Assembly (NCBI RefSeq): GCF_014643735.1
Contig: NZ_BMKA01000002.1
Span: forward strand, 930,001-994,000
Reading direction: 5' to 3'
From: Neptunicoccus cionae
Lineage (GTDB): Bacteria; Pseudomonadota; Alphaproteobacteria; Rhodobacterales; Rhodobacteraceae
DNA: 64,000 nucleotides
Shown: piece after piece, positions 40,574 to 55,835 of the stretch
How positions within the stretch are numbered: position 1 is the first letter of the stretch
Layout: the number at the start of each line of letters is the position of its first letter
The notes under the pieces: generated by a model
Database searches by the model: none
Seen by the model: only the letters and a program-made list of their open reading frames with translations
What the model was told of the DNA's origin: nothing
Translations under genes and position numbers: made by a program

Positions 40574-40676
40574 GGTTAACGGGCTGGTTACGGCTCACTC
40601 TGCTGTGTCTATCAGTGCGGTCGCGCAATTACCCTGTTTGTTCGTCTAGAATGGCGATACTTTTGGATAGTTTGCC

Positions 40677-41264
40677 TTGAAACAAATACAAAAACTTGGA
40701 ATTTGCCTTGCCCTGATGATGCCAGCACCCGCGATTGCGCAGGATACCTTCGGGCTAAGTAAGACACGATATGCGCTTTATCAAAGCCAGATTAACGTGT
40801 TGGAGCGGCGTGGTATCCTCAAACCCGCAGCAGAAGCAAAGAAAGCGCCAGTCGTTCAAGAAGTCATAGTATCTACAAAAGGCAAACTCAGAGGACGCCA
40901 TATGGCCGTCTATTTGTCCTCTGCGAAAGAGGCTGCCCGTCGGCACAACGTGCCTGAAAGCCTGTTTTTGCGCTTGATCCAACAGGAATCCGCCTGGAAT
41001 AAAAATGCCAGATCTCCGGTCGGGGCGATCGGGTTGGCACAGCTCATGCCCGGAACTGCGCGTGAATTGGGCGTAAATCCGAACGATCCCCACGCCAATC
41101 TTGAAGGCGGTGCCCGCTACCTCAGTGAACAATACAAACGCTTCGGAAGCTGGCGGCTGGCTTTGGCTGCCTATAACGCCGGACCCGGTGCCGTGAAGAA
41201 ATACAACGGCATTCCACCTTACAAGGAAACTCAGAACTACGTTCGCAAAATCCTTGGTGGATGA
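40677..41264 (+). CDS. Lytic transglycosylase (SLT domain family 1)
   Basis: This secreted murein-cleaving enzyme of 195 residues has a signal peptide (about 1-22, LGICLALMMPAPAIA) and a C-terminal SLT domain: VPESLFLRLIQQESAWNKNA with the catalytic Glu in QQESAW, then SPVGAIGLAQLMPGTAREL, NLEGGARYLSEQY and LALAAYNAGPGAVKKY. It cuts glycan strands to 1,6-anhydro-muropeptides. The start is TTG at 40677; the only nearby ATG is out of frame. It stands alone. Confidence 0.92.
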   Translation: MKQIQKLGICLALMMPAPAIAQDTFGLSKTRYALYQSQINVLERRGILKPAAEAKKAPVVQEVIVSTKGKLRGRHMAVYLSSAKEAARRHNVPESLFLRLIQQESAWNKNARSPVGAIGLAQLMPGTARELGVNPNDPHANLEGGARYLSEQYKRFGSWRLALAAYNAGPGAVKKYNGIPPYKETQNYVRKILGG

Positions 41265-41295: not shown

Positions 41296-41892
41296 TCAAC
41301 GAAAGTAGGGCAATGCCCTCATCGCGACTTTTGTGTGCATCCACCTGCCTTGGGTATGAATTTCGCGCTGAACCAATTTGGCGGTGTCATACCGTGTGCA
41401 GGCCAATTCCAATTGACTAAGGGACGCGCGTAAATCCTTTGCGCCAAACAATGCGCAAGAGCCTCCGAATTTATGGGCTGCGGATTGAAGTCTCGGGTAT
41501 TCGCGCATTGAAATTAAATGAGCGATATTTCCGGTCATCCTGTCGCCCTCCGCCAGAAAACACTCCAGCTTAATCGACAGTTCTTCTGCGCCGAAAACGT
41601 GTTTAAGCTCCCCAAGCTGGTTTTGACATAACAAAGGAAGATCCTTCTGTTTCGTCCGCATTGTAGGAGCATCGCGTCCACAAGGGTGCAGTCCGGCTTT
41701 CCTTGATACACTGTGCGAGAGACGGTTCACCGCAAGCGCATTTTTATGCCGAAATTCCAAATGCCCGTGGACGAGCATATCATGAGGAACCGGCCCTTGA
41801 GTGTTGATTTTCTTGCTCATCAGTTCACTTAAAATCTGCTGAATGAGCCGTTTCCTTCCCGAAACCTGCATAACCTTCCTGTAATTTTCCAT
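41296..41892 (-). CDS. Hpt-domain phosphotransfer protein
   Basis: The C-terminal half of this 198-residue protein carries a histidine phosphotransfer motif: LISMREYPRLQSAAHKFGGSC followed by ALFGAKDLRASLSQLELAC, with H140 as the likely phosphate carrier. The common pattern is H-x-L-K-G-S; here it reads H-K-F-G-G-S, with Phe and Gly at the Leu and Lys positions. Residues 1-100 match nothing I know. It diverges from a NarL-type response regulator. A hybrid kinase lies 11 kb away beyond the DUF11 genes, and kinases ending in a receiver need an Hpt to pass phosphate on. I therefore infer that this is the relay's middle step. Confidence 0.72.
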   Translation of the reverse strand: MENYRKVMQVSGRKRLIQQILSELMSKKINTQGPVPHDMLVHGHLEFRHKNALAVNRLSHSVSRKAGLHPCGRDAPTMRTKQKDLPLLCQNQLGELKHVFGAEELSIKLECFLAEGDRMTGNIAHLISMREYPRLQSAAHKFGGSCALFGAKDLRASLSQLELACTRYDTAKLVQREIHTQGRWMHTKVAMRALPYFR

Positions 41893-42123
41893 TCATACAT
41901 CCCCATATCTTGTAGGCGCCGCTCAAGAGTATCTCTGCCACAAGGTTATTGCGTCTTGGTTGTGGTATTATCCCCGCGCGAAATACTGGCCTGATGAGCT
42001 ATACCTTTGGAGTGTTATTCCGCAGAATAATTAAGAAAGTCGTAATTTTTGAAAGGGTGCGGCGGTACAAAAATATGCTTCGGGTCAGTCTGTTTCGCAA
42101 AAAAACCGGGTAGATCAAATTAG
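41893..42123. other. Non-coding gap between the hpt-like gene and the response regulator unit
   Basis: I see no protein or RNA gene in this AT-rich stretch. It must hold the promoters of the divergent hpt-like and regulator genes. A perfect dyad TTATTC-CGCA-GAATAA at 42015-42030 is a possible operator. Confidence 0.5.
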
Positions 42124-42345
42124 TTGGGCAATTTGAAAGAAATATTAACCTTTTCACGGGTACAACTTTCTAAGCGAGAAACCGGAAACGCATCGCGGTT
42201 GGTTTCCGACATTATACGTACGAGACGCCGTGATACCGGGGAGCCATACGGGACAGGTCTATGGAAAATTGTCACGCCTCTAAAGACAAGGTTACAGGCG
42301 GCATATGCAAGGTTGGATGGGATGAATGAAGATATTGATAGCTGA
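42124..42345 (+). CDS. Small hypothetical protein before the response regulator
   Basis: A 73-codon frame from a TTG start overlaps the regulator start by 20 bp. The basic product contains a stretch (EPYGTGLWKIVTPLKTRLQ) faintly like the G-box of a kinase ATPase domain, which could mean a decayed kinase fragment. There is no good ribosome-binding site and no family I recognise. It may not be translated. Confidence 0.25.
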   Translation: MGNLKEILTFSRVQLSKRETGNASRLVSDIIRTRRRDTGEPYGTGLWKIVTPLKTRLQAAYARLDGMNEDIDS

Positions 42346-42937
42346 TGACCACGATTTGGTTCGTGATACGATTGCTTCGTACATTCAGGCCGAAGCCAAC
42401 ATAGAAGTATCGCGTTCTGCTAATCTTCATGAAGCCCTGAGCGAAATTAGTTCAGAGGGTCCTTTTGATTTGGTGCTTCTGGATTTCGACATGCCGGGCA
42501 TGAATGGATTGTCCGGCCTGACCAAAGCGTTAGAGGCGAATTGTCAGAAACCGGTGGGAATCATTTCTGGCACGGCTACCGCATCCATCGCGGAAGCGGC
42601 TTTGGAAGCGGGTTCTGCTGGATTTCTGCCAAAAACAATGTCGGCGAGATCACTGTTGAATGCTGTGCGATTTATGGCTGAAGGCGAAACCTTTGCGCCG
42701 GTCAGCTTTATGGCGAACCGCAATGAATGTGACCACGAATTTGACACCCTTCTTTCGACTCGGGAAAAAGAAGTCCTAACCGGATTGTCCAAAGGACTGG
42801 CCAATAAGGAGATCGCCCGCGAGCTTGAATTGCAAGAGGTCACTGTAAAGCTGCACTTGAAAACTCTCAGCATTAAATTGAACGCTCGTAACCGCACGCA
42901 TGCTGCTATGATTGCAAGGGATGCAGGATTTATCTGA
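42326..42937 (+). CDS. NarL/FixJ-family response regulator (REC + LuxR-type HTH)
   Basis: The receiver domain (1-118) starts MKILIADDHDLVRD and has the acceptor D53 in LVLLDFDMPGMNG and the conserved Lys in GFLPKTM. The DNA-binding domain (about 140-200) has LSTREKEVLTGLSKGLANKEIA and ELQEVTVKLHLKTLSIKLNARNR, the LuxR/GerE helix-turn-helix. It should bind DNA when phosphorylated. ATG 42326 has GGATGGG about 6 bp upstream. It is divergent from the Hpt gene, and a terminator separates it from the large DUF11 barrel gene that runs toward it. Control of that gene set is an inference from position. Confidence 0.93.
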   Translation: MKILIADDHDLVRDTIASYIQAEANIEVSRSANLHEALSEISSEGPFDLVLLDFDMPGMNGLSGLTKALEANCQKPVGIISGTATASIAEAALEAGSAGFLPKTMSARSLLNAVRFMAEGETFAPVSFMANRNECDHEFDTLLSTREKEVLTGLSKGLANKEIARELELQEVTVKLHLKTLSIKLNARNRTHAAMIARDAGFI

Positions 42938-42968
42938 AGAGTTGATGACCTAGGATGCTGTATAAAGA

Positions 42969-42996
42969 AAAGGCGGCACCGAAGGGTGCCGCCTTT
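42969..42996. terminator. Bidirectional terminator between the response regulator and the DUF11 barrel gene
   Basis: A perfect 12-bp stem (AAAGGCGGCACC, 4-base loop, GGTGCCGCCTTT), with A-rich sequence on its left flank, lies between the convergent 3' ends. Confidence 0.88.
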
Positions 42997-43049
42997 AGAG
43001 TGCAGGCCGGAAACTGCGTCATGCTCCCGCATTTCCAGACTGCGCTCGT

Positions 43050-46000
43050 TCATTGGGACAGGAAATTATCCAACTGATCCCATAGGTTCTCCGTCAGTTT
43101 TAAACGCAGTCGCAAATATAAACCTTTCTGAAAATGACGGCTTTGAAACGGAAGTTGTTCAGTCGCGTGGTTGTATCCAATCGAAACCATCGCACCTTCC
43201 GCAAAAACATACCCTGCCTCTATTCCGTAAGCCTGTGCCGCAAACCCGTCGTCGTCCCACATGTGGTATACGTTTCCTGACAGCTCCAGCTTTTCGGGCA
43301 ATGCATCCCAGGTGACACCTGCCTGCAGAAGTTGGGTAAGGCTCGCCGTTTCGATTCCACCGAGCGGGGAGCTGAGGCTGGAATACTGGCCGGCGTATTT
43401 GCCGTTAACGCGCAGGTCGGGTTGCAGATCCCACGTTCCGGCAAGGGACCACAGATGTTGCGTTTCTTCGTTTATGTCCCGATCCCGCTGGTATTCATAC
43501 CATCCCAAAGCATTGAAACGCGCGTCATCCAGCGGGCGGTAAGCTGCGCCAACGCGCAGACGTTCCCGGATACGCGCATTCTGGCCGGATCGTCCATCAC
43601 GCGCATGGCGTCCCCGTGCAAGCACCGTCACGCCCGGGCTAATTTCACCTGCCATGCCGATATCGGCGTAGAATGTGTTTCCTGTCTTCTCAAACGTTTG
43701 GTCCAGATTGGCCTCTGCAACCCAATTGCCATCCCGGGATTCCCACGCACCGCCAAGGGCAATGCTGGTCAGACCGGAGTCAGGTCGTGACAGGTTCAAA
43801 GAATGCTCCAGCGTCATATCGAGCGAGGTGCGTTCATTCAGCTCCAGCCGCGTGGAGAAACCCTGCACCAGAAGATCATCTCCCAAATCACCGGGGTTTG
43901 TTGTCACTTCGGTGCGCCCGTCGAGCCAGTGATTTACCCGATATTCAACACCGATATGGGCGCGGGTCAGCTTGTCACCAAGATCACCAAAGGACAGTTC
44001 GAATTCACCAAAGACACGCAGGTCTTCACGGACATGGTAATCTGCTGCGACGATAAACTTACCCTGACCTTCACCTGAAAGCGGCAGTTCTTTTACGAAT
44101 TTCATGACCATGCCGGGAGTGGAAACCGGCCGCCAGACTGCCTCGTCCTTGAAGTAGGTGGTGGTTTGTTTGTCCAGTGGCGACTTTTCGACAACCATGC
44201 GGAAGCCGGAGGCCCGCGTCAGCGTTTCATTCACCACGCCGCGTACCAGTATTTCAGCGCCGAGTGTTTCCTGTTTCGTTGCGAAATCGGACTGGTAGTC
44301 AGCGGATGCAACCAGCGTTCTGCTGTCGCTTAGGCGTCTTTCATAGTCCAGAGAAACCTGTGCCATACCTGCACGAACGCTTGATCCGACAGGGGCGAAC
44401 TTCAATCCTGTTCGGGCCGCTTCAAACCGGAAACGGGTGTCTTCGGAAACATAATCATAGGCAATGCGCCCCGCATATCCGCGTTGCCCAAACCCGTCTT
44501 CGGCTTGCGCGACTTCGGCTTCAAGGGTGGCGTTGTCGTTGATCTTATTTTGTAAAAAAGCGGAGTAAATTTTGTACCGCTCTTCAGTTCCAGCAGCACC
44601 ATCAGAATGAATTGCACGCGCGCCGATTGTTACCCTATCGTTCAGTTCTGAAATTGCCTCAACACCGTAGAGCCAGTATTTCTCGCCGCTGCTTCCTTCA
44701 ATATTATAGGTGATCCGGAACGAGACCGGATTGCCCAGAGGATCGGCCTGACGCAGAGGGGTGTCAAAAACGATGGTGTTGAGAAAGAAATCCAACAGAT
44801 AATCGGACATGCGGCGCAAGCGTGTTTCCGAAAGGATCACACCAGTGTCGCGATCTCGCACAATTACATCGACCTGATCTGAACCTTCCTGATAACCCGC
44901 CAGATCGACCTCATAGGGACCGGACACACCGCGACCTGCGATCTCAAGGGTACGAATTTCCTGCGATGTGCGGGCGGCAAAGGCTGTTACCCTTGTACGC
45001 TCTCCCTGCCAGTTGGCTTTCACGCCCGTTGTTACAGTGCGCAAGCCACCCAGTTCGAACGCAGAGGAGCCAGGTTCAATGGCAATATCGCCATAAACCA
45101 GTGAGGATGCACCACGTTCGAAACTGACATAGAGATCGCTGGACGATTGACCGTCGTAACCGCGTTCGGACTCATCCCCGTAAACTGGGTAGCTTTCATC
45201 GGTGTTGATGTCTCGGAACAGGCGATCCTCTTCATCGCTGTCGCTGCTATAGCGTAGCGTCATCAGGGTTTCCCGACCAACACGGCCTTTCATAAAAATT
45301 TCGCCACGCAGGCCGGTATTAGTGTCTTCGAAGGCGCTGAATTCACCTTCGTTGAGAAGCTGTCCACCGGACTGTCGTGCAACAGTGCCTTCTAGCACAC
45401 CAACGAGTATCCGCTCTTCCAGATTGGGAGAAAACAGGATTGAGGCTTCGGCGCGTCCAAGGGTACCGCTTTGCGCGCTCAGCAGGTCTGGCCCGGCCAT
45501 TTGGGGCGGGATCAACGAAACTTCTGCGATTCCGCTATCCACATAAATCTGCACACCGGGTTGGTTCGCGCGAATATCTTTTACGTCCCAGATACCACGA
45601 CGCGCGTTCAGCGTTACCACGGTCGCGGCTTTCACAAGCTCACCTTTGGTGTCGAGGATTTGCACCGTAAATTTTACGCGCTCTGTCGGAGAGGCAGAAG
45701 CAGCTTTTGGGCCGACCAGTTTGATCTTTTGGGCATCGCCCGGCGCGAAGACACGGATTTCCTGAGATTTGCGGATATTCCCGAAAGGGTCTTTGCCCAC
45801 CAGTTGCAGCAGGTTTTCACCAGCGACCAGTTTAACGGCAACATATTCGATGGCTTGTACATTGCCACCGGCCCACGTGCTCCGCTCGCCTATGCGACTG
45901 CCACCGATTTTCTGACCGTTGACGATCAGGTTGAGACCGAGATCGGCCGGACCTTTCACGCGCAGGGATAGGGTGCGACGTGTCAACCGATCCTGATCTG

Positions 46001-48791
46001 AAAGACTAATGAAACCGATTTCTGGTGAAAAGGTTTTGATCACCTGTTCCAGCGTTTTCTTTGTTTCGCCGGAGGCTCCATCCGCGCCTTCAGATTGCAG
46101 GCTGCCGTTTTCAATCCTGGAACCGCCAACGATTTGTGTGGAGGTTGCAAGACCAGCCTCACTGCGCACGGATTGCGGGGTGTTGCTGCTGATATCGACG
46201 GGCAATTCGGTAAAACTGCGTAGGCCTTCGGGGTCAGTGTTGCGCAGTGTATCGCGGCGTGTGCTGACTTCGGCCATTACTGCCGGTGTGCAGCTTTCGA
46301 GCGGGAAATCTTCGGCCCGCACTTCGCCCCGCTTTAATGCGACCAGACGAGAACCTGCCTGCTGCATGTCCGACACGCGGGAGACGACAGCTTTGCTATC
46401 TTCCGGCAAGGTGCTGTTTTGCAACGCGAGCACGTGAGAGACCGGGCGCAGGCCGAAGAGGCTGTATTTGCCATCGGCGTCCGTCACAACCATCAGGCCT
46501 TCCTGTGTGATGATCCGGACGCCTGCTACACCGAGTTCCTCAGCGGAATCGCGCACCCCGTTGCCGTTACAATCCATAAAGACCGATCCGATGATAGCGC
46601 CCTTACGAGAGAACACACCGTTGGAAGTATCAAGCGCCACAGTTGCCTGCGCTGTGTTGGACAAGCGGGTTTCACCTGAACCGGCTTGCTGGCCGGTCAG
46701 ATAGGCGCTGTTCACGCGATCGCCCGAGCGGGCAGATGGGGTGAAACGTAACACGTACGTCAGTTCTACAGTTTCAAGTGGGGGGATAATGCCCAACGCA
46801 AAGCGATGCGCGCCCATGGGGTCGACGGACGGTTGGTCAATCGCCACCCCATCAAGCAGAGCTGTGCCCTCGACATAGATTGCGCCACGCGGCAGCGTAT
46901 CGACAAGAATAGCCTGTGTAAGAGCCTGGTTCATACCGTTTTGCGCTTGCACTGTGTAGGTAACGAAATCGCCGGTTTGGGCTTGTCTTTTATTCGCGGT
47001 CTTTTCGATGGACAGTGGAACGCCGTAAAACGGATCGAGGGGAATATCCATTGGATAGACCGGTCCGCCTTCGTGTTTGAAACGATCGCCGTAGGACGCT
47101 TCTGCATCTACGTTGCGGGTGAAGCCGCGAAAATCGGTTCTTTCCGAGGCGAAGGTGTAGTCGGCAGGAGGCAGAACATGTGTGGTGTAGCGGCCCTCAG
47201 AGATGTCGCCGAGCGCGAAAAACCCAGTGGAGTCGCTGATGACTTCGGCGACGACCACGCCAGCGCGGTTCAGCAGTTGAACCGTCGCATTTGAGACCGT
47301 TTCATTGGTCAAGCTGTTGAATACGTAGGATCCAGGACGCACCAGCAGCGTATCGAATACCGTCTGTTCACGGCATTCTGCACGGGCTTGCAGGTTATCA
47401 CCCGGGGCGGAAGCGATCACGCCATCGCCCGATTTGGGCAAGGACATTTGTGCGATTGGCAACAGGGCGGTTGTGAAAATGCCGGTATTTGCACCAGTCT
47501 CGGTGGCGGTGACGGTTTCGGTGTCATTGGTAATGGTGCTTGTGACCTCAATTGTCACAACATCCACGCCTGCAGACGTGTTGCAAGCGCCAGAGGTCAA
47601 AACAAGGCGTGTATCACGGTCCAGATCCGAAGTTTCAGCTGCGGTGTCAGTGTCTGGATCAATGAAATCCAAGGAAGAGGTTACATCAGCTATGCGATCG
47701 AATGAGACAGTATTTGATGGAATTTCTGACAGCGCACCATCGGCAACCATATAAGTCATGGCAGTGTTTTCAACAGTTACCGGACCCAGGTGATCGGAGA
47801 CCAGAACGGCGAAGCTTACATCTGTAGATCGACCAATGGCAAAATCACCTTCATGAAGGAAAGCCACGGCATCCACTGTGGACAAATCTTCTGGCATAGT
47901 GCTTTGGTAGCTGTGTTTTCTTTGCCCGCGCTGATGATATCCGGCGATCATTTTGCCAGCTGGAGATGTGGATAGAAGAGTTGTGTTCAGGGGGATGGCG
48001 TCCCGCAGGACGATGCCGCGAAAGGACACGCCATCTAGAAAAATATTTTGCCCGTCCAGCACAGAGTAAGCAGAAACGATGGTTTCGGCATTGTTTCGCA
48101 GGGCCAGCGTGAATGTAGCAATTTCGCCATCCGGTGCATCACGGCGTTCAAGCTTTTTGCGCAGTTGCAGGGCTTGATCCACGATGACAACCATACCGCG
48201 GCCTTCACCTTCGGCTTTTACCGATTCACCCGAATTGGCGGAGAAGGCTGTGATCCGCAGATTTGATTCTTCGCTGTCGTCAAGCAAGGCAGTGGCTGAA
48301 ACGCGGAAACGATAGATCAGTTTTACGGATTCTGACGTGGCGATTGGCAAAGTGTCGCCCTTGAAAATCTCGCGTTCGTCGGCGTCAATGACACCGTTTC
48401 CGTTCGCATCGATGAACAGAGCGGTGTCTGTCAGCATCAGTGATTTTTCGGCGTTTTTGATCCAAGCACTGTAGATCAGATCGACGTTGCCGGTGTTTGT
48501 AATTTCGTAGGCGTGTTCGGCAAAAGCGCCGCGCGACAACCTGAGATCGGTCCGGCCGGTGATTTCCAGTGCGGGCACTTCGCGGACGAGAGCCTCAACA
48601 GGGTTGGACCGGACTGTTTCGCTGATGCCCAGACCACGGTGGAAATAAGTGGCAGAGGCGATATTCCTGATAATGCTTCCGCCAGGTGCAATCTCGGAGA
48701 CTGCGGGGCTGGAGACGCTTAGACCAAGAGCGGTGCCCAGGATCAATGCGTGACAGGATTTCTTGATTTGATTGAATGCCGAGCAGAGCAT
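43050..48791 (-). CDS. Giant secreted DUF11/SdrD-like protein with C-terminal outer-membrane beta-barrel domain
   Basis: This 1913-residue protein has a signal peptide (about 1-32). An N-terminal Ig-like domain follows, with a calcium-type loop DANGNGVIDADE at 128-139. A regulatory beta-sandwich lies at about 485-560, a DUF11 domain at about 590-705 (SIEKTANKRQAQTGDFVTYT), and an SdrD B-like domain with DCNGNGVRD at 740-748. From about 1125 to the end the sequence alternates polar and hydrophobic residues with aromatic girdle residues (LYVSFERGASSLVYGD, KGLYLRLRLKL). This is the look of a long outer-membrane beta-barrel of some 790 residues. I infer a surface-anchored adhesin or scaffold. It is the last of three leftward DUF11 genes. 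Its function is unknown. Confidence 0.82.
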   Translation of the reverse strand: MLCSAFNQIKKSCHALILGTALGLSVSSPAVSEIAPGGSIIRNIASATYFHRGLGISETVRSNPVEALVREVPALEITGRTDLRLSRGAFAEHAYEITNTGNVDLIYSAWIKNAEKSLMLTDTALFIDANGNGVIDADEREIFKGDTLPIATSESVKLIYRFRVSATALLDDSEESNLRITAFSANSGESVKAEGEGRGMVVIVDQALQLRKKLERRDAPDGEIATFTLALRNNAETIVSAYSVLDGQNIFLDGVSFRGIVLRDAIPLNTTLLSTSPAGKMIAGYHQRGQRKHSYQSTMPEDLSTVDAVAFLHEGDFAIGRSTDVSFAVLVSDHLGPVTVENTAMTYMVADGALSEIPSNTVSFDRIADVTSSLDFIDPDTDTAAETSDLDRDTRLVLTSGACNTSAGVDVVTIEVTSTITNDTETVTATETGANTGIFTTALLPIAQMSLPKSGDGVIASAPGDNLQARAECREQTVFDTLLVRPGSYVFNSLTNETVSNATVQLLNRAGVVVAEVISDSTGFFALGDISEGRYTTHVLPPADYTFASERTDFRGFTRNVDAEASYGDRFKHEGGPVYPMDIPLDPFYGVPLSIEKTANKRQAQTGDFVTYTVQAQNGMNQALTQAILVDTLPRGAIYVEGTALLDGVAIDQPSVDPMGAHRFALGIIPPLETVELTYVLRFTPSARSGDRVNSAYLTGQQAGSGETRLSNTAQATVALDTSNGVFSRKGAIIGSVFMDCNGNGVRDSAEELGVAGVRIITQEGLMVVTDADGKYSLFGLRPVSHVLALQNSTLPEDSKAVVSRVSDMQQAGSRLVALKRGEVRAEDFPLESCTPAVMAEVSTRRDTLRNTDPEGLRSFTELPVDISSNTPQSVRSEAGLATSTQIVGGSRIENGSLQSEGADGASGETKKTLEQVIKTFSPEIGFISLSDQDRLTRRTLSLRVKGPADLGLNLIVNGQKIGGSRIGERSTWAGGNVQAIEYVAVKLVAGENLLQLVGKDPFGNIRKSQEIRVFAPGDAQKIKLVGPKAASASPTERVKFTVQILDTKGELVKAATVVTLNARRGIWDVKDIRANQPGVQIYVDSGIAEVSLIPPQMAGPDLLSAQSGTLGRAEASILFSPNLEERILVGVLEGTVARQSGGQLLNEGEFSAFEDTNTGLRGEIFMKGRVGRETLMTLRYSSDSDEEDRLFRDINTDESYPVYGDESERGYDGQSSSDLYVSFERGASSLVYGDIAIEPGSSAFELGGLRTVTTGVKANWQGERTRVTAFAARTSQEIRTLEIAGRGVSGPYEVDLAGYQEGSDQVDVIVRDRDTGVILSETRLRRMSDYLLDFFLNTIVFDTPLRQADPLGNPVSFRITYNIEGSSGEKYWLYGVEAISELNDRVTIGARAIHSDGAAGTEERYKIYSAFLQNKINDNATLEAEVAQAEDGFGQRGYAGRIAYDYVSEDTRFRFEAARTGLKFAPVGSSVRAGMAQVSLDYERRLSDSRTLVASADYQSDFATKQETLGAEILVRGVVNETLTRASGFRMVVEKSPLDKQTTTYFKDEAVWRPVSTPGMVMKFVKELPLSGEGQGKFIVAADYHVREDLRVFGEFELSFGDLGDKLTRAHIGVEYRVNHWLDGRTEVTTNPGDLGDDLLVQGFSTRLELNERTSLDMTLEHSLNLSRPDSGLTSIALGGAWESRDGNWVAEANLDQTFEKTGNTFYADIGMAGEISPGVTVLARGRHARDGRSGQNARIRERLRVGAAYRPLDDARFNALGWYEYQRDRDINEETQHLWSLAGTWDLQPDLRVNGKYAGQYSSLSSPLGGIETASLTQLLQAGVTWDALPEKLELSGNVYHMWDDDGFAAQAYGIEAGYVFAEGAMVSIGYNHATEQLPFQSRHFQKGLYLRLRLKLTENLWDQLDNFLSQ

Positions 48792-48844
48792 TTTATAAAC
48801 CAGTTCTGACTTGAGGGAATGGATGAGAAGAATGGGGCAGGGAT

Positions 48845-48875
48845 GCTCTCCCCGGGTTAGGGGCCCGGAGAGAGC
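48845..48875 (-). promoter_or_regulatory. Hairpin between the 885-residue and giant DUF11 genes
   Basis: GCTCTCCCCGGG (48845-48856) pairs with CCCGGAGAGAGC (48864-48875) with one mismatch, giving a stable stem 9 bp past the stop of the 885-residue gene. No U-run follows leftward, so partial termination or mRNA stabilisation is more likely than full stop. It may make the upstream protein more abundant than the giant one. Confidence 0.6.
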
Positions 48876-48883
48876 GGTTTTGC

Positions 48884-51541
48884 CTATTCAGCGACCTTCA
48901 CTGTGAATTCCAGTCGGGCGTAATCACCCGGGAGGACAGTGTTGTGGAAGCTTTCAGCGGTCGTGCCGGTGATGGTCACAGAGCTGGAAGGTTCCGCAGG
49001 GTAGACACTGTAGGCACAGGCGCCGCCGCAAGATTCGATGGATGTGTATGCTGGAGCTACATCCTGAATTTTTACGTTGCCTGCATTCGTGGTGCCTGTG
49101 TTTGCCGCCTCGATTTGGTAGCGGATACACTGACCGGGTTCGACATCCTGACGTTCGGTGGTGAATGTGCCCACTGTGCCATCGCAGCTTGCGTCAATGT
49201 ACTGCATCTTGGTCAATGTGATGTCGCCAGAGACGATGATTACACGATCTTCAACAGCGTTGTTGGACGTGTCGATGTCCGCGTCTGCATCTGCGTTCAG
49301 AAGGTTCTCGATAGAGATTGTTCCGATTTCGGACAGACCAGGAGTTGCCGTGGACGGTGTTTGGACACGATAGATCAGGGAGATGGTTTCACCAGCGGCG
49401 ATACCGTTAGACCCTACGCCGAGGTTGTCTACCAGATCATCAAAGTTGTCGATGACGATCTCAGTCGGGTCCAGAGCACCGTTGCCATTGGCATCCCAGA
49501 AGATCGCACCTGAGAAGTCTGTCAGACCGGTTTGGGTCAGCGCACCTTCGGTGATATCGATGTTCGAGTTGTTGGTGATCTTGTGGATCATATCAACCAC
49601 ACCACCCGGAGATGCCTGTGCTTCTTGATCCGCTTCGATCTGCACGTCGACCACTTTATTCACGGTCACTTGGTTGATGATGCGATCGGACTGGCCGGTT
49701 ACGGCAGACGCAACTTTGATATCAATCAGCGTATTGCTTGGCGGGTATCCTTCGGTCGGTGTGATGACGACGATAAAGTCTTTATTGCCACCTGCCGGGA
49801 TTGTACCGGTGTTCGATACCACGGTTCCGTCAGTCAGTTGGAATTCAACGGTCCAACCGGTCGGGATTGGCTGATCCAGCGTGATGTTGAAGCTGTCGGA
49901 GGTTGGTCCGCCGTTTTCAACATTCATCGGGAAAGAAACAGGTACACCGGGGTCAGTTGCGGAAGTTACCCAAGGGTTTGCCCCGTTTGTGGGGTTTGCG
50001 CCATCGCCTTCAGAACCGGCAACGTCATTTTCAAGATCGATTGCTGCTGCCAAAACCGCGCCTGTGAATTCCGCTGTGGAGCTGTCAAAGCTGCCGCTGT
50101 TTTCCGAAGTTGCCACAACATTGGCTGTAAATTCGGACGTTGGGACTGGGGAAACATCAGTTGGCAGGGTGGCCAGCAAGGTTACTTTGCGGGTTTCACC
50201 GGAAGCCAATGGTCCGACTGTGCCTACGATTGGTGTTGCACCGTCTTCGGCAACCATGCGGAACGTCGTACCGCTGGGGAAGTCGATGTTGGTGACATCC
50301 AGAGTGTAGCTGTCAGTGACGTTAGATGTGTTGGAGATCACAAACTCGAAAGGAATTGTGGCGCCTTGCGATACATCTGCGCTGTCTTCAACAATGTCGT
50401 TGGCAGTGGCGTCTGTATCAGTTGCTGATGCAACTGTGCCGTCCCGTGTGCCGTCCAGATTGATTTTCGTGTCATCAATCTCAAGGCTGAACTGCTCGTC
50501 CGCTGTGATCTGTGCAGTGTTGGAGTCGGGGAAGGCGGTTCCGTCAACCGATTGTGTCGCAGTGTTGGGGATGATGCCGGCTGGCACATCGTCTGCCACG
50601 GTGGCTTTAAAGGTAACTGTGCCGGATCGACCGGAAGGTACGCTGCTCAGGACGAACTGGAGTGTTTGTGCAGAGTCATAGGACCATGCGATAGTTTGTC
50701 CGCCGCCGTTGGTTTTGTCAGTTGCAGCTGCGCCATTGCTTTCATCCATAGTGCCGGTGGCATCCGACCATGTTGCCGAGTTTGCAACGTAGTCCAGACG
50801 ACTATCCAGAATATCCTGCACAATATAGTTGCTGGCATCTGTCAGACCGGTGCTGGAGTAGGTCAGCTTGATGGTCACCTCATCGCCGGAGTCGACAATC
50901 GCGTTGTTACCGGTGCCGGAGGCTGGGTCGACTGTCATCGACTTGACCACTTCGACGATTGCGCCGGTTGAGATGGTCAGTGTGTCTGTATTTGTGTCGG
51001 TAATCGTGTTGTCCAACACGGATACAGCTTCGACAGTGATGTCATCTGTACCTGTTTCGGCAGCATCGGCAGTTGCTTCGATGACGAAACCGAACTGTTC
51101 ACCCGGAGCAAGAACCGGAGTTTCTGTGATGGGCGTCGCGCTGTCTGCTACACCGTCCATATCCGCATCAGGATAGAAGACCAGTGTTGTATCCAATGCG
51201 CCTGTGTTTTGTTCGGTTGCAGACAACGTGAAGTAATCAGGCCCGTTACCGTCATTGGTGATAACGTGCGGCAGAAACGCTTTACCACCTGGTGCGATTG
51301 CTTCGGAGTTGTCCGAAATCATTGTCAAACCGGCCACTTGTTGAACAACTGTTTCAACTTTGTTCGATGTGACGGTGATAGAGTCACCGGAACTGTTTGT
51401 ATAAGTCGCGACTGCTTGGTTGCCGATCACGGATCCGGCTTCCGGCGGTGCCGCCATTGCTGCGGCCCCTACGACCGACAGAAGTGCGGCTGTAGAACAG
51501 CCACGGAGGAAGATTGAACTAGAATTCACTTTACTCACCAT
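48884..51541 (-). CDS. Secreted DUF11-repeat protein
   Basis: This 885-residue protein has a signal peptide (cleavage near residue 30, AAAMA). It contains several Ig-like DUF11 domains with phrases such as EVTIKLTYSSTGLTDASNY, GRSGTVTFKATVADDVPAG and CIRYQIEAANTGTTNAGNVK. Calcium-type loops occur at 125-133 (DADMDGVAD) and 683-691 (DANGNGALD). Its N-terminal module (GSVIGNQAVATYTNSS, SNKVETVVQQV) matches that of the giant protein (GSIIRNIASATYFHRG, SNPVEALVREV), so the two are related. It is very low in Lys and lacks a membrane anchor or barrel, so it is probably released or held by the giant protein. The ATG has no evident ribosome-binding site. Confidence 0.85.
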   Translation of the reverse strand: MVSKVNSSSIFLRGCSTAALLSVVGAAAMAAPPEAGSVIGNQAVATYTNSSGDSITVTSNKVETVVQQVAGLTMISDNSEAIAPGGKAFLPHVITNDGNGPDYFTLSATEQNTGALDTTLVFYPDADMDGVADSATPITETPVLAPGEQFGFVIEATADAAETGTDDITVEAVSVLDNTITDTNTDTLTISTGAIVEVVKSMTVDPASGTGNNAIVDSGDEVTIKLTYSSTGLTDASNYIVQDILDSRLDYVANSATWSDATGTMDESNGAAATDKTNGGGQTIAWSYDSAQTLQFVLSSVPSGRSGTVTFKATVADDVPAGIIPNTATQSVDGTAFPDSNTAQITADEQFSLEIDDTKINLDGTRDGTVASATDTDATANDIVEDSADVSQGATIPFEFVISNTSNVTDSYTLDVTNIDFPSGTTFRMVAEDGATPIVGTVGPLASGETRKVTLLATLPTDVSPVPTSEFTANVVATSENSGSFDSSTAEFTGAVLAAAIDLENDVAGSEGDGANPTNGANPWVTSATDPGVPVSFPMNVENGGPTSDSFNITLDQPIPTGWTVEFQLTDGTVVSNTGTIPAGGNKDFIVVITPTEGYPPSNTLIDIKVASAVTGQSDRIINQVTVNKVVDVQIEADQEAQASPGGVVDMIHKITNNSNIDITEGALTQTGLTDFSGAIFWDANGNGALDPTEIVIDNFDDLVDNLGVGSNGIAAGETISLIYRVQTPSTATPGLSEIGTISIENLLNADADADIDTSNNAVEDRVIIVSGDITLTKMQYIDASCDGTVGTFTTERQDVEPGQCIRYQIEAANTGTTNAGNVKIQDVAPAYTSIESCGGACAYSVYPAEPSSSVTITGTTAESFHNTVLPGDYARLEFTVKVAE

Positions 51542-51570
51542 TTGTTAAGGTTTGGATTGGTTGGGGTTGA

Positions 51571-51579
51571 GGGGGGGGG
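51571..51579 (-). repeat. Homopolymer tract (C9 on the coding strand) in the DUF11 leader
   Basis: Nine consecutive G on the + strand (C9 in the mRNA) lie 30 bp before the ATG of the 885-residue gene, in a C/A-rich leader. Such tracts can change length by slippage and so alter expression. Confidence 0.7.
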
Positions 51580-51588
51580 TAATTTCTT

Positions 51589-51608
51589 CCGAGTGGAGCG
51601 CCACTCGG
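51589..51608 (-). promoter_or_regulatory. Hairpin after the small DUF11 gene
   Basis: CCGAGTGG (51589-51596) and CCACTCGG (51601-51608) form a perfect 8-bp stem with a 4-base loop, 2 bp past the stop of the 170-residue gene. Leftward the transcript is C-rich rather than U-rich, so it is more likely an attenuator or an mRNA 3'-end protector. Confidence 0.55.
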
Positions 51609-51610
51609 GC

Positions 51611-52123
51611 CTAATTTACGATCACGCGGTACGAATTCTCTGAGGCGCCACCACCGGGCAGCGGAGAGTCGAGGACCCAGCGAACAGCTTCGATTGCTTC
51701 AGCTGGAACTGGCTCAAGCCGTTCCGAACCGTCAGCGTCGACGACTTTGCGCATGGCTGGGAGGGTGGACCATTCAAGTCCGGGTTTGTCCTGATCCAGC
51801 TCGGCTTCGATCTCAAAAGTGGCTGGCAACGAGCTTTCGTGCCGGTCCATCACAAAGGTCACGCCTTCGGGGATCGGGCCGGAAACAACCAGACCGGATA
51901 GATTGTCTTCGGTCGTGTTTTTGTGGGTGATAATATACTGGATGGTTTCACCGGGGGCGACGCTGTCACGTTCGCTCAGCACCTCGTTCCCGTCGGCGTC
52001 CTGTTCCACAATTCGGAAATCGAAGGACGACTTCAACGCATCGGCACTGGCGTGGGGCGCCTGAAATAATACCGCGGCGACAACGACGCCGGCAGCAGAT
52101 AAGATATTTTTCTTAAACAACAT
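51611..52123 (-). CDS. Small secreted DUF11-like protein
   Basis: This 170-residue protein has a signal peptide (about 1-27, VVVAAVLFQAPHASA) and one Ig-like/DUF11 domain: SVAPGETIQYIITHKNTTED, LSGLVVSGPIPEGVTFV and a C-terminal AVRWVLDSPLPGGG. The start at 52123 has AGGAG 8 bp upstream. An in-frame ATG at 52195 would add 24 residues before the signal peptide and is unlikely. It leads the three-gene leftward set and diverges from the hybrid kinase. It could be a subunit or cap of a structure formed with the two larger proteins, but that is inference. Confidence 0.8.
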   Translation of the reverse strand: MLFKKNILSAAGVVVAAVLFQAPHASADALKSSFDFRIVEQDADGNEVLSERDSVAPGETIQYIITHKNTTEDNLSGLVVSGPIPEGVTFVMDRHESSLPATFEIEAELDQDKPGLEWSTLPAMRKVVDADGSERLEPVPAEAIEAVRWVLDSPLPGGGASENSYRVIVN

Positions 52124-52572
52124 GTGATAGCTCCTTTTGGCCCCATCCCTAAGAGGCCGGTTTGTTTGAAACGCTTTCGAAACACCGAGAGGCATCCGAG
52201 AACGATTAAGCTTTCACATTGATTGTGCTGTCCGAGCTATCCCCCCGAACGCATACCGAGAGCCGCATTTGATTAGGAAAATGCGCACAAGTCGTAAGGG
52301 ACTGGACCGATGCGTAGCGTCAGTATCCAATCGTTTTATGGTCCTATCCTTATGAGCACAGGTTTCCCCCAAGCGCGTGGCTGATCCGCGCGCTGAAAGA
52401 CTCTCTCGAACAGAGAATCACCTGCCTCGGCCCAATCGATTTGATTAAAAAACGATATAAGTATTAGATACTTACTGGTTCAGGTGCGTTGAAAACCCCA
52501 AGCGAACCTGCCATTCTTCAGGCTTAGAACCTCACACGATTTATATTCACGGCACAACCGGAGGAGCGCTTG
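52124..52572. other. Long non-coding gap between the DUF11 genes and the hybrid kinase
   Basis: This 449-bp region has no convincing gene on either strand. It must hold the promoters of both divergent units. It contains the dyad at 52458-52474 and a TTTCGAAA palindrome near 52175-52182 close to the DUF11 side. Confidence 0.55.
52458..52474. promoter_or_regulatory. Perfect dyad, possible operator
   Basis: TAAGTAT-TAG-ATACTTA is a 17-bp perfect inverted repeat about 100 bp before the kinase start. LuxR-type regulators bind short AT-rich dyads, so the nearby NarL-type regulator is a candidate binder. Confidence 0.45.
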
Positions 52573-54411
52573 ATGCGGACTGTTCAAATGCAATCCAAGG
52601 AAATACCTAAGGCCTCTGAGCAGATTTTTGACCGGTCCGTTTCTTGCAATGGTCCCTTTAATCCGATGATGTGCTACACACTTGATCAGTCGGCGATGGG
52701 GGCTGCAACAGGGCTTAGGGAGTTTGATGTCTCTCTTACGGCGCCTCGGATAGCCGGTCGTATCTTGGTAGGGTTGCCACCGCGCACCCCAAGTATTCAT
52801 CCGCGCGACGGGCTACACCTCCGGCAGGTGCCGGACTCAAAGGAACAAGGTAAAAGCCCGGGGACAGACCGCCCTGCGGATATCCTAAACGATATTCCGG
52901 ACCTCATTCTTCGGTGTAGTGCTGGGGGTCAAATCCTCTACTCTAACGATGCTTTCAGGGCGTTCTGTGAAGGCATGACGGACAACACATCGCAGATTGC
53001 AGTCCAAATGTTTACAGCGGGCCATTCCCGCGAAACTTTTAAGGCCGCTATCGCCGGGCTGACCCGTGACGCACCGCATACGGTATTACAGCAGACTGTT
53101 TTCCCGCCCCAAAGTGCCGCGCGCGTGATTGAATGGTCGATTACCAAAAGGTTTGAGGGCAGCGCATTCATTGAACTTCTTTGTGTCGGGCGAGATGTCT
53201 CGACCCACGCAGTAGAAAAAAAGGAATTGTTGGCGCGCGCTATAAGATCGGAGACCGAAAGCGACGCGAAATCCGCATTTGTCGCGGACATCGGTCACGA
53301 ACTGAAAAATCCGCTGAACGGCATCATGGGCATGGCGCACCTACTCCAATGTTCTGTGCACGCGGGCCGCGAGACTGGCTATATAAAAAATATCCTAGCA
53401 GCGGGAGATGAACTTCAGACGCTGCTGAAGGACATCGTGGATCTTGGGGTCATGGATGCAGACGCGATGGAAGTGGCCAGGGAACCGTTTCACATGTCCG
53501 ACATCTTTGAAAAGGTGGGGTCGCTGTACGGCACGGCTGCAATAGACGCGCATAAACCGTTTCAATTTCATCTTGAACGAAGTTGCAGACGTTTGCTTGT
53601 CGGTTGTCATGGCCGCATCAAGCAGGTTTTGACGAACCTTCTTATCAACACGATCAAATACGCGAGCGCGGGTACGATTCAAATTACCGCTTCAATCGAA
53701 TTCCCAACACGTGGCGAGCCAACTCTGTATGTGTTCGTCGATGATCAGGGGCCGGGCATCGCGGATGAAGATAAATCCCGGATTTTTAAACGCTTTGCCC
53801 GCCTCGATGGTGGGGCGACCATGCCGGAAGGGCACGGCTTGGGGTTGTCGATATCTAAGCAGATATGCCAGATGCACGGAGGGACCTTAATCGTCGAGGA
53901 TTCCAATCGAGGGGGTTCTCGGTTCAGGGCGAGCTTTCGCGTCTCCCCGTCGCAAGACAACGTTTTGCCCCCCGCCACTCCACTGGCGAAATTGCAGGGT
54001 GCGGCACTTGGCCTGAATATTCTGGTCGTGGAAGACAACGAACTGAACGCGACTTTCATGAAGCAGATTCTCGGCCAGTCAGGGGCCAGTGTCTCCGTCG
54101 CGGAAAACGGCGCAGTGGGGCTGGATCGAATACTGAAAGAAGATTTCGACATCGTTTTCACTGACATTCGTATGCCGGTTATGGATGGTATCGAAATGTT
54201 GGAGGCGTTTGAAAAATGCCGCGCTAAAAGTCACAAAATACCACAGTTCATCGCCTGTAGCGGGGGGGCCGAAACGGAGGACGGGCCGAGCCTTCGATCC
54301 ATTGGTTTTAACGCGGCGGTAGAAAAACCCGTTTCCATCGCAAATATCAGCAGGCTTCTTTCAGATTTCGTGGCGGGAGATTCGGCGAATGTAACCAGTG
54401 GCAGCCTCTAA
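52573..54411 (+). CDS. Soluble hybrid histidine kinase (PAS-like, HisKA, HATPase, REC)
   Basis: The order in this 612-residue protein is: an unassigned N-terminal region (1-100), a PAS-like sensor domain (about 105-215), HisKA with the phosphorylated His at about 241 (FVADIGHELKNPLNG), and an ATPase domain. The ATPase has an N box (VLTNLLINTIKYA), G1 (DDQGPGIAD) and G2 (GHGLGLSI). A receiver domain follows with its acceptor Asp at about 531 (DIVFTDIRMPVMDG). No transmembrane segment is visible, so it senses a cytosolic cue. A C-terminal receiver implies transfer through an Hpt protein, such as the one at 41.3-41.9 kb. ATG 52573 has AGGAG upstream. Confidence 0.93.
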   Translation: MRTVQMQSKEIPKASEQIFDRSVSCNGPFNPMMCYTLDQSAMGAATGLREFDVSLTAPRIAGRILVGLPPRTPSIHPRDGLHLRQVPDSKEQGKSPGTDRPADILNDIPDLILRCSAGGQILYSNDAFRAFCEGMTDNTSQIAVQMFTAGHSRETFKAAIAGLTRDAPHTVLQQTVFPPQSAARVIEWSITKRFEGSAFIELLCVGRDVSTHAVEKKELLARAIRSETESDAKSAFVADIGHELKNPLNGIMGMAHLLQCSVHAGRETGYIKNILAAGDELQTLLKDIVDLGVMDADAMEVAREPFHMSDIFEKVGSLYGTAAIDAHKPFQFHLERSCRRLLVGCHGRIKQVLTNLLINTIKYASAGTIQITASIEFPTRGEPTLYVFVDDQGPGIADEDKSRIFKRFARLDGGATMPEGHGLGLSISKQICQMHGGTLIVEDSNRGGSRFRASFRVSPSQDNVLPPATPLAKLQGAALGLNILVVEDNELNATFMKQILGQSGASVSVAENGAVGLDRILKEDFDIVFTDIRMPVMDGIEMLEAFEKCRAKSHKIPQFIACSGGAETEDGPSLRSIGFNAAVEKPVSIANISRLLSDFVAGDSANVTSGSL

Positions 54412-54594: not shown

Positions 54595-54681
54595 TGGTGC
54601 CCAGAAGAGGACTCGAACCTCCACGTCCATACGGACACTAGCACCTGAAGCTAGCGCGTCTACCAATTCCGCCATCTGGGC
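54595..54681 (-). tRNA. tRNA-Leu (anticodon CAG)
   Basis: The 87-nt gene folds as a class II tRNA: acceptor GCCCAGA/TCTGGGC, D arm, anticodon loop TTCAGGT giving CAG, a long variable arm (TGTCCGTATGGACG), T arm GAGGTTCGAGTCCTC, discriminator A and an encoded CCA. It reads leucine CUG codons. It lies in the gap between the kinase and the NDUFA9-like gene. Confidence 0.97.
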
Positions 54682-54821
54682 AACAGATCACGTAGGGGGC
54701 GATTTACAGATGGTCGGGGGGGGTGTCAACGGGTGATTCACATCTAATTTCAGCAATTGTGCTTGTGAGTGGGGCCACATCGCATTATTTCAGGGCAAAC
54801 CCCAGTTGTCGGAGCGCAATT

Positions 54822-55835
54822 ATGTTACAATCGCCTAAAGTTGTTACCATTTTCGGTGGGTCCGGATTTGTCGGTCGCTACATCGCGCGGCGGATGGCGA
54901 AAGAAGGCTGGCGCGTACAGGTAGCTGTTCGTCGGCCAAATGAAGCCGTATTCGTGCGCCCTTACGGTGTTGTCGGGCAGGTCGAGCCTGTGCTGGCAAA
55001 TATCCGTAATGATGAATCTGTGGCGCAAATCGTTGCAAACTCCGACGCGGTTGTGAATTGCGTTTCCGTACTTCAGGAACACGGTAAGCAAACCTTCGAG
55101 GCGTTGAATGTTGAAGGCGCAGCGCGGATCGCAAAGGCCTGTGCAGCGGCGGGTGTCGCGCGGTTGGTCCATATTTCAGCACTTGGTGCGAACCTTGAGT
55201 CCGATAGTGCCTCTGCCCGCTCAAAGGCAGAGGGAGAGCAGGAGATTCTCAAAGCGTTCCCGACAGCGATGATCCTCCGGCCCTCCGTGATTTTCGGGAA
55301 TGAAGATCAGTTCCTGAACCGGTTTGCGCAGATGTCTTCCTTCACACCGGTTCTGCCGCTGTTTGGTGGTGGGTCAAAATTTCAGCCAGTTTATGTGGAT
55401 GATGTGGCGCAAGCGGCGTGCAAAGGAATTCTGGGTGAGGCCGAGCCAGGCATTTATGAACTTGGCGGACCCGATGTGGAAAGCCTGAGTGAGATCGTGA
55501 AGCGGATGCTGCATATCACGCGCCGCCGTCGCCTTGTGATTAATCAGCCGTTTTTCCTTGGAACGATTTTGGGTAAGACATTGGATATGGTGCAAAAGCT
55601 GAGCCTTGGGTTGTTCACCAACACGATACTGACAGCCGATCAGGTGAAACAACTGCGCAACGACAATGTTGTGTCCAACACGGCTAAATCATTTGCGAAT
55701 TTGGACATTACCCCAACATCTTATGAGACAGTCGCAGAACAATATCTCTACCGTTACCGCCCGTCGGGGCAGTATGCTGAATTGACCGAGAGCGCACGTC
55801 ATATGCGTGGCACGCCGACGACCAGCGACTTTTAA
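54822..55835 (+). CDS. NDUFA9-like NAD(P)-binding complex I accessory protein
   Basis: This 337-residue atypical short-chain dehydrogenase has the nucleotide-binding loop TIFGGSGFVGRYIARRMAKE and then VAVRRPNEA, LVHISALGANLES and MILRPSVIFGNEDQFLNRF, which is the NDUFA9 pattern. In mitochondria and alphaproteobacteria these proteins bind NAD(P)H and help assemble or stabilise respiratory complex I; catalysis is not expected. ATG 54822 has GGAG 7 bp upstream, better than an upstream frame that runs into the tRNA flank. A terminator follows. Confidence 0.9.
   Translation: MLQSPKVVTIFGGSGFVGRYIARRMAKEGWRVQVAVRRPNEAVFVRPYGVVGQVEPVLANIRNDESVAQIVANSDAVVNCVSVLQEHGKQTFEALNVEGAARIAKACAAAGVARLVHISALGANLESDSASARSKAEGEQEILKAFPTAMILRPSVIFGNEDQFLNRFAQMSSFTPVLPLFGGGSKFQPVYVDDVAQAACKGILGEAEPGIYELGGPDVESLSEIVKRMLHITRRRRLVINQPFFLGTILGKTLDMVQKLSLGLFTNTILTADQVKQLRNDNVVSNTAKSFANLDITPTSYETVAEQYLYRYRPSGQYAELTESARHMRGTPTTSDF

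What the first reader, a model, noticed from the sequence alone, without database searches (positions are those of the whole stretch)
41296..54411. A complete phosphorelay encloses a three-gene DUF11 surface-protein set
On one side lie a stand-alone Hpt protein and a NarL/LuxR response regulator; on the other lies a hybrid kinase ending in a receiver. Between them, on one strand, lie three signal-peptide proteins built from DUF11/Ig-like modules. The kinase's receiver requires an Hpt step, and the locus supplies one, so all parts of His-Asp-His-Asp transfer are present. I know no described system with this make-up. I infer that the relay switches these surface proteins on or off, perhaps for attachment or aggregation.
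Basis: partly seen in the sequence, partly recalled or inferred. Interest (0 to 1): 0.85.

Follow-up and report, generated by a model that had tools for sequence, protein, structure and literature searches.

The report
Rewired phosphorelay beside surface-protein operon
In marine bacteria of the roseobacter kind, a conserved three-gene set for probable outer-surface proteins sits beside a switch protein and carries what looks like its DNA landing site, and in this bacterium's lineage the sensor half of that switch has been replaced and is changing fast.

Summary
The DUF11 trio is a conserved operon (21 of 21 loci examined). In 18 of these 21 genomes a NarL-type regulator of the P0002 family lies within 8 kb. 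In 13 of them that regulator stands beside a different input: a membrane hybrid kinase with its own receiver and Hpt, 12 times with a PruR-like (pterin-binding-type) exported protein ('PruR-DTB'). A 16-bp palindrome, CTATCC-N4-GGATAG, found de novo before the trio (14 of 17 loci at score 12 or more), also lies before many pruR/regulator genes, so direct control is likely but unproven. In this window's lineage (near Neptunicoccus) regulator and Hpt look like duplicates of a PruR-DTB module kept elsewhere: the stand-alone Hpt groups with that kinase's Hpt domain. The local soluble kinase falls outside that family, diverges far faster than its neighbours, and in two of four strains lacks its kinase core. 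So the 'complete relay' holds here but is not a fixed unit; the regulator-trio link is. A role in attachment remains a guess.

The parts
41296..41892 (-). P0001, stand-alone Hpt protein (H140); its Hpt domain groups with the Hpt domain of the lineage's own DTB kinase
   Evidence: Pfam Hpt; best match outside the locus in a 394-genome survey is the DTB kinase of N. sediminis; tree 99/96
42326..42937 (+). P0002, NarL/LuxR-type response regulator (D53), the conserved partner of the trio
   Evidence: Pfam; within 8 kb of the trio in 18 of 21 trio genomes; sister to a second copy elsewhere
43050..48791 (-). P0003, 1913 aa: DUF11/SdrD_B modules and a C-terminal predicted large outer-membrane-type beta-barrel
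   Evidence: Pfam, low-confidence model, Foldseek
48884..51541 (-). P0004, 885 aa: chain of Ig-like/DUF11 domains, better conserved between genera than P0003
   Evidence: Pfam, model, Foldseek Ig-like chains, 47-70% identity between genera
51611..52123 (-). P0005, 170 aa single DUF11-type exported protein (start moved from 52195)
   Evidence: ribosome site and leader conserved in the lineage
52344..52359 (.). Probable regulator-binding site CTATCCTTATGAGCAC, one full and one degenerate half of CTATCC-N4-GGATAG
   Evidence: motif score 12.6, third best place in the window; aligned copies in three relatives
52124..52330 (-). Conserved promoter/leader of the trio, with a 6-bp stem before the ribosome site
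   Evidence: alignment; single-sequence fold
52573..54411 (+). P0006, soluble hybrid kinase: PAS-like region (by eye; no Pfam match), HisKA (H243), HATPase, receiver (D532)
   Evidence: Pfam, no membrane segment by hydropathy, outside the DTB clade

Best explanation
The locus is a probable outer-surface protein operon (DUF11 trio) with its dedicated LuxR-type response regulator. Phosphorylated P0002 most likely binds a CTATCC-N4-GGATAG-type site roughly 135-240 bp before the trio and switches its transcription. In most relatives the regulator is fed by a PruR-like periplasmic protein plus a membrane hybrid kinase carrying receiver and Hpt (PruR-DTB type). In the window's lineage that module was duplicated: the full copy lies elsewhere with its own regulator, and the copy at the trio kept only the regulator and the Hpt domain, now a free-standing protein (P0001). 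A soluble hybrid kinase, P0006, apparently of other ancestry, feeds it here: His243 to Asp532 to P0001 His140 to P0002 Asp53. Shown: gene content, residues, synteny, phylogeny, motif enrichment, rate differences. Inferred: phosphotransfer, binding, direction of control, surface location and purpose.
For: Trio in the same order in 21 of 21 loci. Regulator within 8 kb of the trio in 18 of 21 genomes; 13 of 14 trio-positive survey genomes have the regulator at 1e-40 against 187 of 380 others. Motif: 14 of 17 upstream regions score 12 or more; search score 91.6 against 48.3 +/- 2.8 (maximum 52.9) in 12 shuffles. In 31 regulator loci there are 31 sites at score 15 or more against 0.0 in 5 shuffles (one of the 31, L066:613, repeats a training site). 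G062, with no regulator match at 1e-40, has no good site in the same place. One PruR-like protein (L004) matches solved pterin-binding proteins at 2.4e-25; W-X7-E or W-X7-D is present in 21 of 23 kinases. Regulator and second regulator are sisters (95/91); P0001 and the lineage's DTB Hpt domains are sisters (99/96). Among window, L001 and L002, P0006 and P0001 keep 44-55% identity where regulator, trio and flanks keep 89-97%.
Against: No binding, phosphotransfer or expression data. The window's own site is half-degenerate (12.6), and L032, which has regulator and PruR-DTB beside the trio, has only a half-site there (7.1). L006 has the regulator elsewhere and no site. Only 13 of 31 regulator loci have a site of 12 or more within 600 bp before the regulator, and sites also occur more than 4 kb away (14 in 312 kb). 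The strict pattern CTATNCNNNNGNATAG occurs 1-3 times per genome, no more often overall than its reversed control. The DTB kinase of N. sediminis (L024) is one of the two of 23 without W-X7-E/D. P0006's kinship is unsure because of long branches. Whether the window's genome holds the second PruR-DTB copy is unknown, since no whole genome is held.
Confidence: 0.62

Rival explanations
1. One reading: P0006, P0001 and P0002 are one insulated four-step relay dedicated to the trio, stable in evolution.
For: All active-site residues are present; the window and N. sediminis have the same full set in the same order.
Against: In L002 and L003 the gene in the kinase place lacks PAS-like region, HisKA and HATPase and keeps N-terminus and receiver only; between these two strains dN/dS is 0.52 for that gene and 0.30 for the Hpt gene against 0-0.06 for the other six genes; 13 of 21 trio genomes use another kinase.
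Confidence: 0.15
2. P0001 is a hub: the PruR-DTB kinase elsewhere in the genome feeds P0001 (its own liberated Hpt) and so P0002, while the P0006 receiver acts as phosphate source or sink; in receiver-only strains it is a sink.
For: P0001 descends from the DTB Hpt domain; P0002 and the second regulator share nearly identical first helices by eye; the receiver in L002/L003 keeps its residues and its dN/dS is 0.24.
Against: No interaction data; free Hpt proteins can change partners after duplication; the second copy has not been seen in the window's own genome (none is held).
Confidence: 0.35
3. The kinase and Hpt genes are decaying leftovers; P0002 acts without phosphorylation or through small-molecule phosphodonors.
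For: Fast divergence of both genes; the N-terminal part in L002/L003 has dN/dS about 1.1; kinase core absent in two of four strains.
Against: Between window and L001 the kinase core has dN/dS about 0.09 (0.28/3.18, dS saturated) and the receiver about 0.14; the Hpt domain is 0.23 in L002-L003: still constrained.
Confidence: 0.2

Closest known systems
PruR-DTB systems (periplasmic pterin-binding protein plus DcpA-TorS-BaeS-type kinase; PMC13259868, section 8 read whole, other passages seen)
   Same: In 12 of 21 trio genomes the regulator beside the trio is paired with such a pair: an Oxidored_molyb-type protein (L004's matches solved pterin-binding proteins) and a membrane kinase with PAS, HisKA, HATPase, receiver (Pfam run on L004 and L024) and in 21 of 23 collected kinases W-X7-E/D. 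P0001's Hpt domain descends from one.
   Different: The window's locus has no PruR-like gene and no membrane sensor; its kinase is soluble and outside the DTB clade. The passages read do not describe a regulator, operator or DUF11 targets.
TorS/ArcB/LuxQ-LuxU hybrid relays (NCBIfam models)
   Same: Domain order HisKA-HATPase-receiver (TorS model 229.5 bits) and a free Hpt (LuxU model 23.8 bits), LuxR-type output.
   Different: All far below the curated cut-offs (676.5; 140), and only the kinase-receiver part matches.
NarL/FixJ-type regulators such as FimZ, NarL, ErdR (NCBIfam)
   Same: Receiver plus GerE domain; FimZ model 80.7 bits, NarL 107.6, ErdR 107.
   Different: Below these models' cut-offs (271, 250, 390); different targets.
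DUF11 repeat proteins with P0003-like architecture, e.g. plasmid-borne relative in Pacificitalea manganoxidans and partial relatives in Acinetobacter, Deinococcus, Thermus
   Same: Pacificitalea copy 41.5% identical over 98% of P0003.
   Different: Among the 33 plasmid records matched only this one covers at least 80% of P0003; the Acinetobacter one covers 74%. P0004 was found in 14 of 394 family genomes and 2 of 376 class genomes.

Membership tests
His-Asp-His-Asp phosphorelay | Hybrid kinase with HisKA, HATPase and receiver, Hpt protein, response regulator, each with its acceptor residue | tested here: met
   Pfam; H243, D532, H140, D53
His-Asp-His-Asp phosphorelay | Phosphotransfer along the chain | not testable with these tools
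   needs purified proteins
   kinase core missing in 2 of 4 lineage loci; other kinase in 13 of 21 trio genomes
PruR-DTB system (window locus) | PruR-like gene beside the kinase | tested here: not met
   no tblastn match (1e-3) of two PruR-like queries in the whole window or L001-L003 stretches
PruR-DTB system (window locus) | Membrane kinase with W-X7-E periplasmic domain | tested here: not met
   no membrane segment, no W-X7-E in P0006; outside DTB clade
PruR-DTB system (relatives' loci) | PruR-like protein related to pterin-binding proteins | tested here: met
   7kos E 2.4e-25; the L004 protein alone was tested, others by similarity to it
PruR-DTB system (relatives' loci) | W-X7-E in kinase N-terminal region | tested here: met
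   W-X7-E in 14 and W-X7-D in 7 of 23; 2 of 23 neither, L024 of N. sediminis among them
PruR-DTB system (relatives' loci) | Pterin binding and effect on the kinase | not testable with these tools
   needs experiment
NarL/FixJ response regulator | Receiver plus GerE/LuxR DNA-binding domain | tested here: met
DUF11 repeat proteins | PF01345 or TIGR01451 above cut-off | tested here: met
   P0003 and P0004 above both; P0005 above TIGR01451 only
Outer-membrane beta-barrel (P0003) | Closed barrel at C-terminus | tested here: inconclusive
   30 long strands at residues 1373-1877 but mean pLDDT of the model 59; Foldseek's first matches are glycosidases, then LptD and SlpA with TM (query) 0.11-0.28

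The most novel reading that the evidence does not exclude
The DUF11 surface operon is an output of pterin signalling in roseobacters, through PruR-DTB kinases and this regulator family with the operator CTATCC-N4-GGATAG; and in the Neptunicoccus lineage the kinase's Hpt domain has been set free as a hub (P0001) so that two hybrid kinases, one pterin-linked and elsewhere, one soluble and local, can feed the same surface switch.
Probability: 0.3. Interest if true: 0.78.

Novelty: new variant of a known kind. Interest (0 to 1): 0.6.

Why it matters
The review passages read describe PruR-DTB kinase pairs from genome comparison and name no regulator, operator or target for them. This locus family offers candidates for all three, and a small set of strains in which the same surface operon is wired through an intact membrane relay, a split relay with another kinase, or a receiver and Hpt alone. 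That makes two open questions testable: what pterin-linked kinases control in marine bacteria, and how a relay is rewired while its output stays under strong selection.

Tried and rejected
A fixed six-gene unit was rejected. A perfect palindrome TAAGTAT-N3-ATACTTA at 52458-52474, before P0006, looked like an operator, but it is not conserved in L001-L003. A motif match before slt (40655-40670, score 14.4) is not present at that place in L001-L003 and is treated as chance. The strict genome-wide pattern gave no clear excess over its reversed control in 8 genomes, so no regulon was drawn from it. P0006 as a diverged DTB kinase was tested by tree and not supported, with long-branch caution. PHROGs gave no match for P0003-P0005. 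The leader hairpin gave only a weak alignment-wide fold (-0.79 kcal/mol, 12 sequences), so no covariation claim is made. T11SS cargo was considered because of a paper found by DUF11 (PMC12282271; 12 of 17 passages seen); the term mostly matched DUF1194 there and gave no link to this locus. Searches for a paper joining these parts: (listings; abstracts' beginnings only, apart from the two papers named).

Rows dropped or limits: the motif search used 17 of 20 upstream regions collected (L001, L002, L007 left out as near-duplicates; L003 never entered; L005 stands as L030); starts of L006, L031 and L042 are approximate. The survey searches score only part of a first look's candidates in each genome (at most 2 for P0004, at most 8 for P0002), and match lists are capped, so counts of genomes are what the tallies give. 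DTB_L008 was left out of the Hpt tree because its Hpt lies in a second open frame, entered apart. DTB_L035 entered the kinase tree uncut. In the shuffle control five shuffles were made.
Full report
What is there. The six open frames lie where the finding says. Pfam and NCBIfam give an Hpt protein (P0001), a NarL-type regulator (P0002), three proteins with DUF11-type modules (P0003, P0004, P0005) and a HisKA-HATPase-receiver kinase (P0006). The phosphate-carrying residues are present: H243 and D532 in P0006, H140 in P0001, D53 in P0002. P0006 has no membrane segment by hydropathy. Flanks are a lytic transglycosylase gene (40677-41264), a tRNA-Leu (54595-54681) and an NAD-binding epimerase-type gene (54723-55835). 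No whole genome is held for the window; its P0002-P0005, P0007 and P0008 are 89-97% identical to Neptunicoccus sediminis.

The trio is a conserved operon. One genome scan with P0003 gave nine loci, eight of them in Rhodobacterales with the full trio. A survey of 394 genomes of the family found P0004 in 14; two of these (G001, G005) were already held as L001 and L005. Together with the window this makes 21 loci, and in 21 of 21 the order is P0005-P0004-P0003 on one strand. At class level P0004 was found in 2 of 376 genomes, one of them N. sediminis itself and the other only 32% identical. The trio is thus patchy but not a singleton.

The regulator belongs to the trio; the kinase does not. A P0002-like regulator lies beside the trio in 17 of the 21 fetched neighbourhoods and about 7.5 kb from P0003 in one more (G239). 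It is elsewhere in two (L006; L031), and G062 has no match at 1e-40. In the survey the regulator family occurs in 200 of 394 genomes: 13 of 14 with the trio and 187 of 380 without a P0004 match. In 12 of 21 trio genomes the regulator stands beside a small exported Oxidored_molyb-type protein and a membrane hybrid kinase with PAS, HisKA, HATPase, receiver and Hpt (Pfam on L004 and L024 examples; L036 shows the kinase only in part; in L008 the Hpt is a separate open frame). In one more, G219, the kinase is there but no such small protein was found. In L033 no PruR-like match was found and no DTB kinase was seen in the fetched stretch. The four loci of the window's lineage have neither; they have P0001 and P0006 or its shortened form instead.

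What the other input is. The small protein of L004 matches solved pterin-binding proteins (7kos, 2.4e-25; 7kp2, 3.8e-22). A review (PMC13259868; section 8 read whole, other passages seen) describes PruR pterin-binding proteins paired with kinases of the 'DTB' type, with a Ruegeria pomeroyi example and a W-X7-E motif in the periplasmic part. In the 23 kinases tested here that motif is W-X7-E in 14, W-X7-D in 7 and neither in 2, one of these being N. sediminis L024. So most relatives' trios stand beside a PruR-DTB pair. The passages read give no regulator, operator or target for DTB kinases. Searches for PruR with Ruegeria and for PruR-DTB terms with LuxR-type regulators listed the review and one unrelated paper; one search listed 15 of 27 papers holding two of PruR, pterin and DcpA, of which only the review was opened. 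A search for DUF11 with Rhodobacteraceae listed one paper, on another system.

A shared operator. De novo search in 420 bp before P0005, 17 loci, gave CTATCCTTAAGGATAG in palindromic form: score 91.6, against a mean of 48.3, sd 2.8 and maximum of 52.9 in 12 dinucleotide shuffles. Fourteen of 17 have a site of 12 or more, 13 of them 136-178 bp before the approximate start and the window's at 236. L032 has a half-site (7.1), L042 9.3 at the far edge and L006 3.7. In 31 regulator loci outside the training set there are 31 sites at 15 or more, none in 5 shuffles; one of these, L066:613, is a training site seen again. Density is 0.16 per kb within 1 kb of the regulator and 0.045 per kb beyond 4 kb; 13 of 31 regulators have a site of 12 or more within 600 bp upstream, 18 do not. 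Several lie between pruR and the regulator, for instance in L004, L007, L024, L025, L049, L062, L064. In the window the best candidate near the trio is 52344-52359, score 12.6, with one half worn; the surrounding block is conserved in L001-L003. Against the motif as a regulon marker: a strict pattern scan of 8 genomes gave 1-3 sites each per strand, the reversed control 0-5.

How the lineage differs. The regulator tree puts the window's P0002 and its three close kin as sister to a second regulator copy in the genomes of L001, L002 and L003 (support 95/91), which in N. sediminis and A. cionae stands with PruR-DTB and without trio genes in the 19 kb fetched (L024, L025). The Hpt tree tells the same story: P0001 and kin are sister to the Hpt domains of the same genomes' DTB kinases (99/96), and N. 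sediminis' DTB is also P0001's best match in the survey outside its own locus. P0006 does not fall in the DTB clade (100/99), though its branch is long. The reading is that a PruR-DTB-regulator module was doubled; the trio kept one regulator and a freed Hpt domain, and a soluble kinase took over.

How stable the new wiring is. Between the window and N. sediminis P0006 and P0001 are 55% and 53% identical, the other six genes 89-97%. In A. cionae (L002) and a related metagenome bin (L003) the gene in P0006's place lacks about residues 109-458 (PAS-like region, HisKA, HATPase) and keeps N-terminus and receiver in one open frame. That both have it argues against an assembly fault; loss is the simpler polarity but gain in the other branch is not excluded. 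Between L002 and L003 dN/dS is 0.52 for that gene and 0.30 for the Hpt gene against 0-0.06 for the other six. By part: N-terminus about 1.1, receiver 0.24, Hpt domain 0.23. The remote DTB kinase in the same strain pair is about 0.10. So the input arm is loosely held, the receiver and Hpt are still constrained, and the regulator and trio are tightly held.

What the trio might be. P0004 is modelled as a chain of beta-sandwiches (mean pLDDT 62; Foldseek matches Ig-like chains such as PrgB). The C-terminal 1014 residues of P0003 give a run of 30 long strands (pLDDT mostly 60-90 there, 59 overall); the first Foldseek matches are glycosidases, followed by LptD and SlpA, all with low TM scores. An outer-membrane anchor with exported Ig-like partners is the natural reading; adhesion is a guess from the class of domains.

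Relatives of the switch elsewhere. In trio-free genomes regulators of this family stand next to an RTX-repeat protein and a UDP-glucose/GDP-mannose dehydrogenase (L043, Pfam; frames with similar first residues in L050, L052-L054), and in L053 next to a FIST-domain protein weakly like NosP and a multi-PAS hybrid kinase. This suggests a family of output regulators for cell-surface products with exchangeable sensors, of which the window holds one odd version; the suggestion rests on these few loci.

Noticed in passing
L053 9609-13569: A FIST-domain (weakly NosP-like) protein and multi-PAS hybrid kinase beside the same regulator family, with RTX-like and dehydrogenase-like frames on the other side; possible nitric-oxide-linked version of the switch. 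L055 looks similar by its first residues but was not tested.
   Followed up: partly
window 52124-52175 and L004, L007, L008, L033-L037, L041: A short stem-like sequence directly before the ribosome-binding site of the trio's first gene in several genera; consensus folding was weak.
   Followed up: partly
window 52458-52474: Perfect inverted repeat TAAGTAT-TAG-ATACTTA before P0006, not conserved in close relatives.
   Followed up: yes
window 14285-14436 (+): Rfam match to the Ruegeria cis2 sRNA, 61.4 bits.
   Followed up: no
L030 10882-16233: In Thalassovita a further 1783-aa GEVED/DUF11 protein lies between regulator and trio.
   Followed up: no
L008 10988-16689: P0003 of Phaeobacter sp. J2-8 is read in two frames, a frameshift or assembly fault.
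   Followed up: no
L035 (G157, 55,280-bp contig, the length of NZ_CP021408.1): The regulator-trio set with PruR-DTB lies on a 55-kb contig that by length matches a Pacificitalea manganoxidans plasmid, so the module may travel.
   Followed up: partly
L081, L082 (G567): A distant P0004-like gene (32%) followed by a second large frame, the only hit besides N. sediminis in 376 genomes of the class.
   Followed up: no
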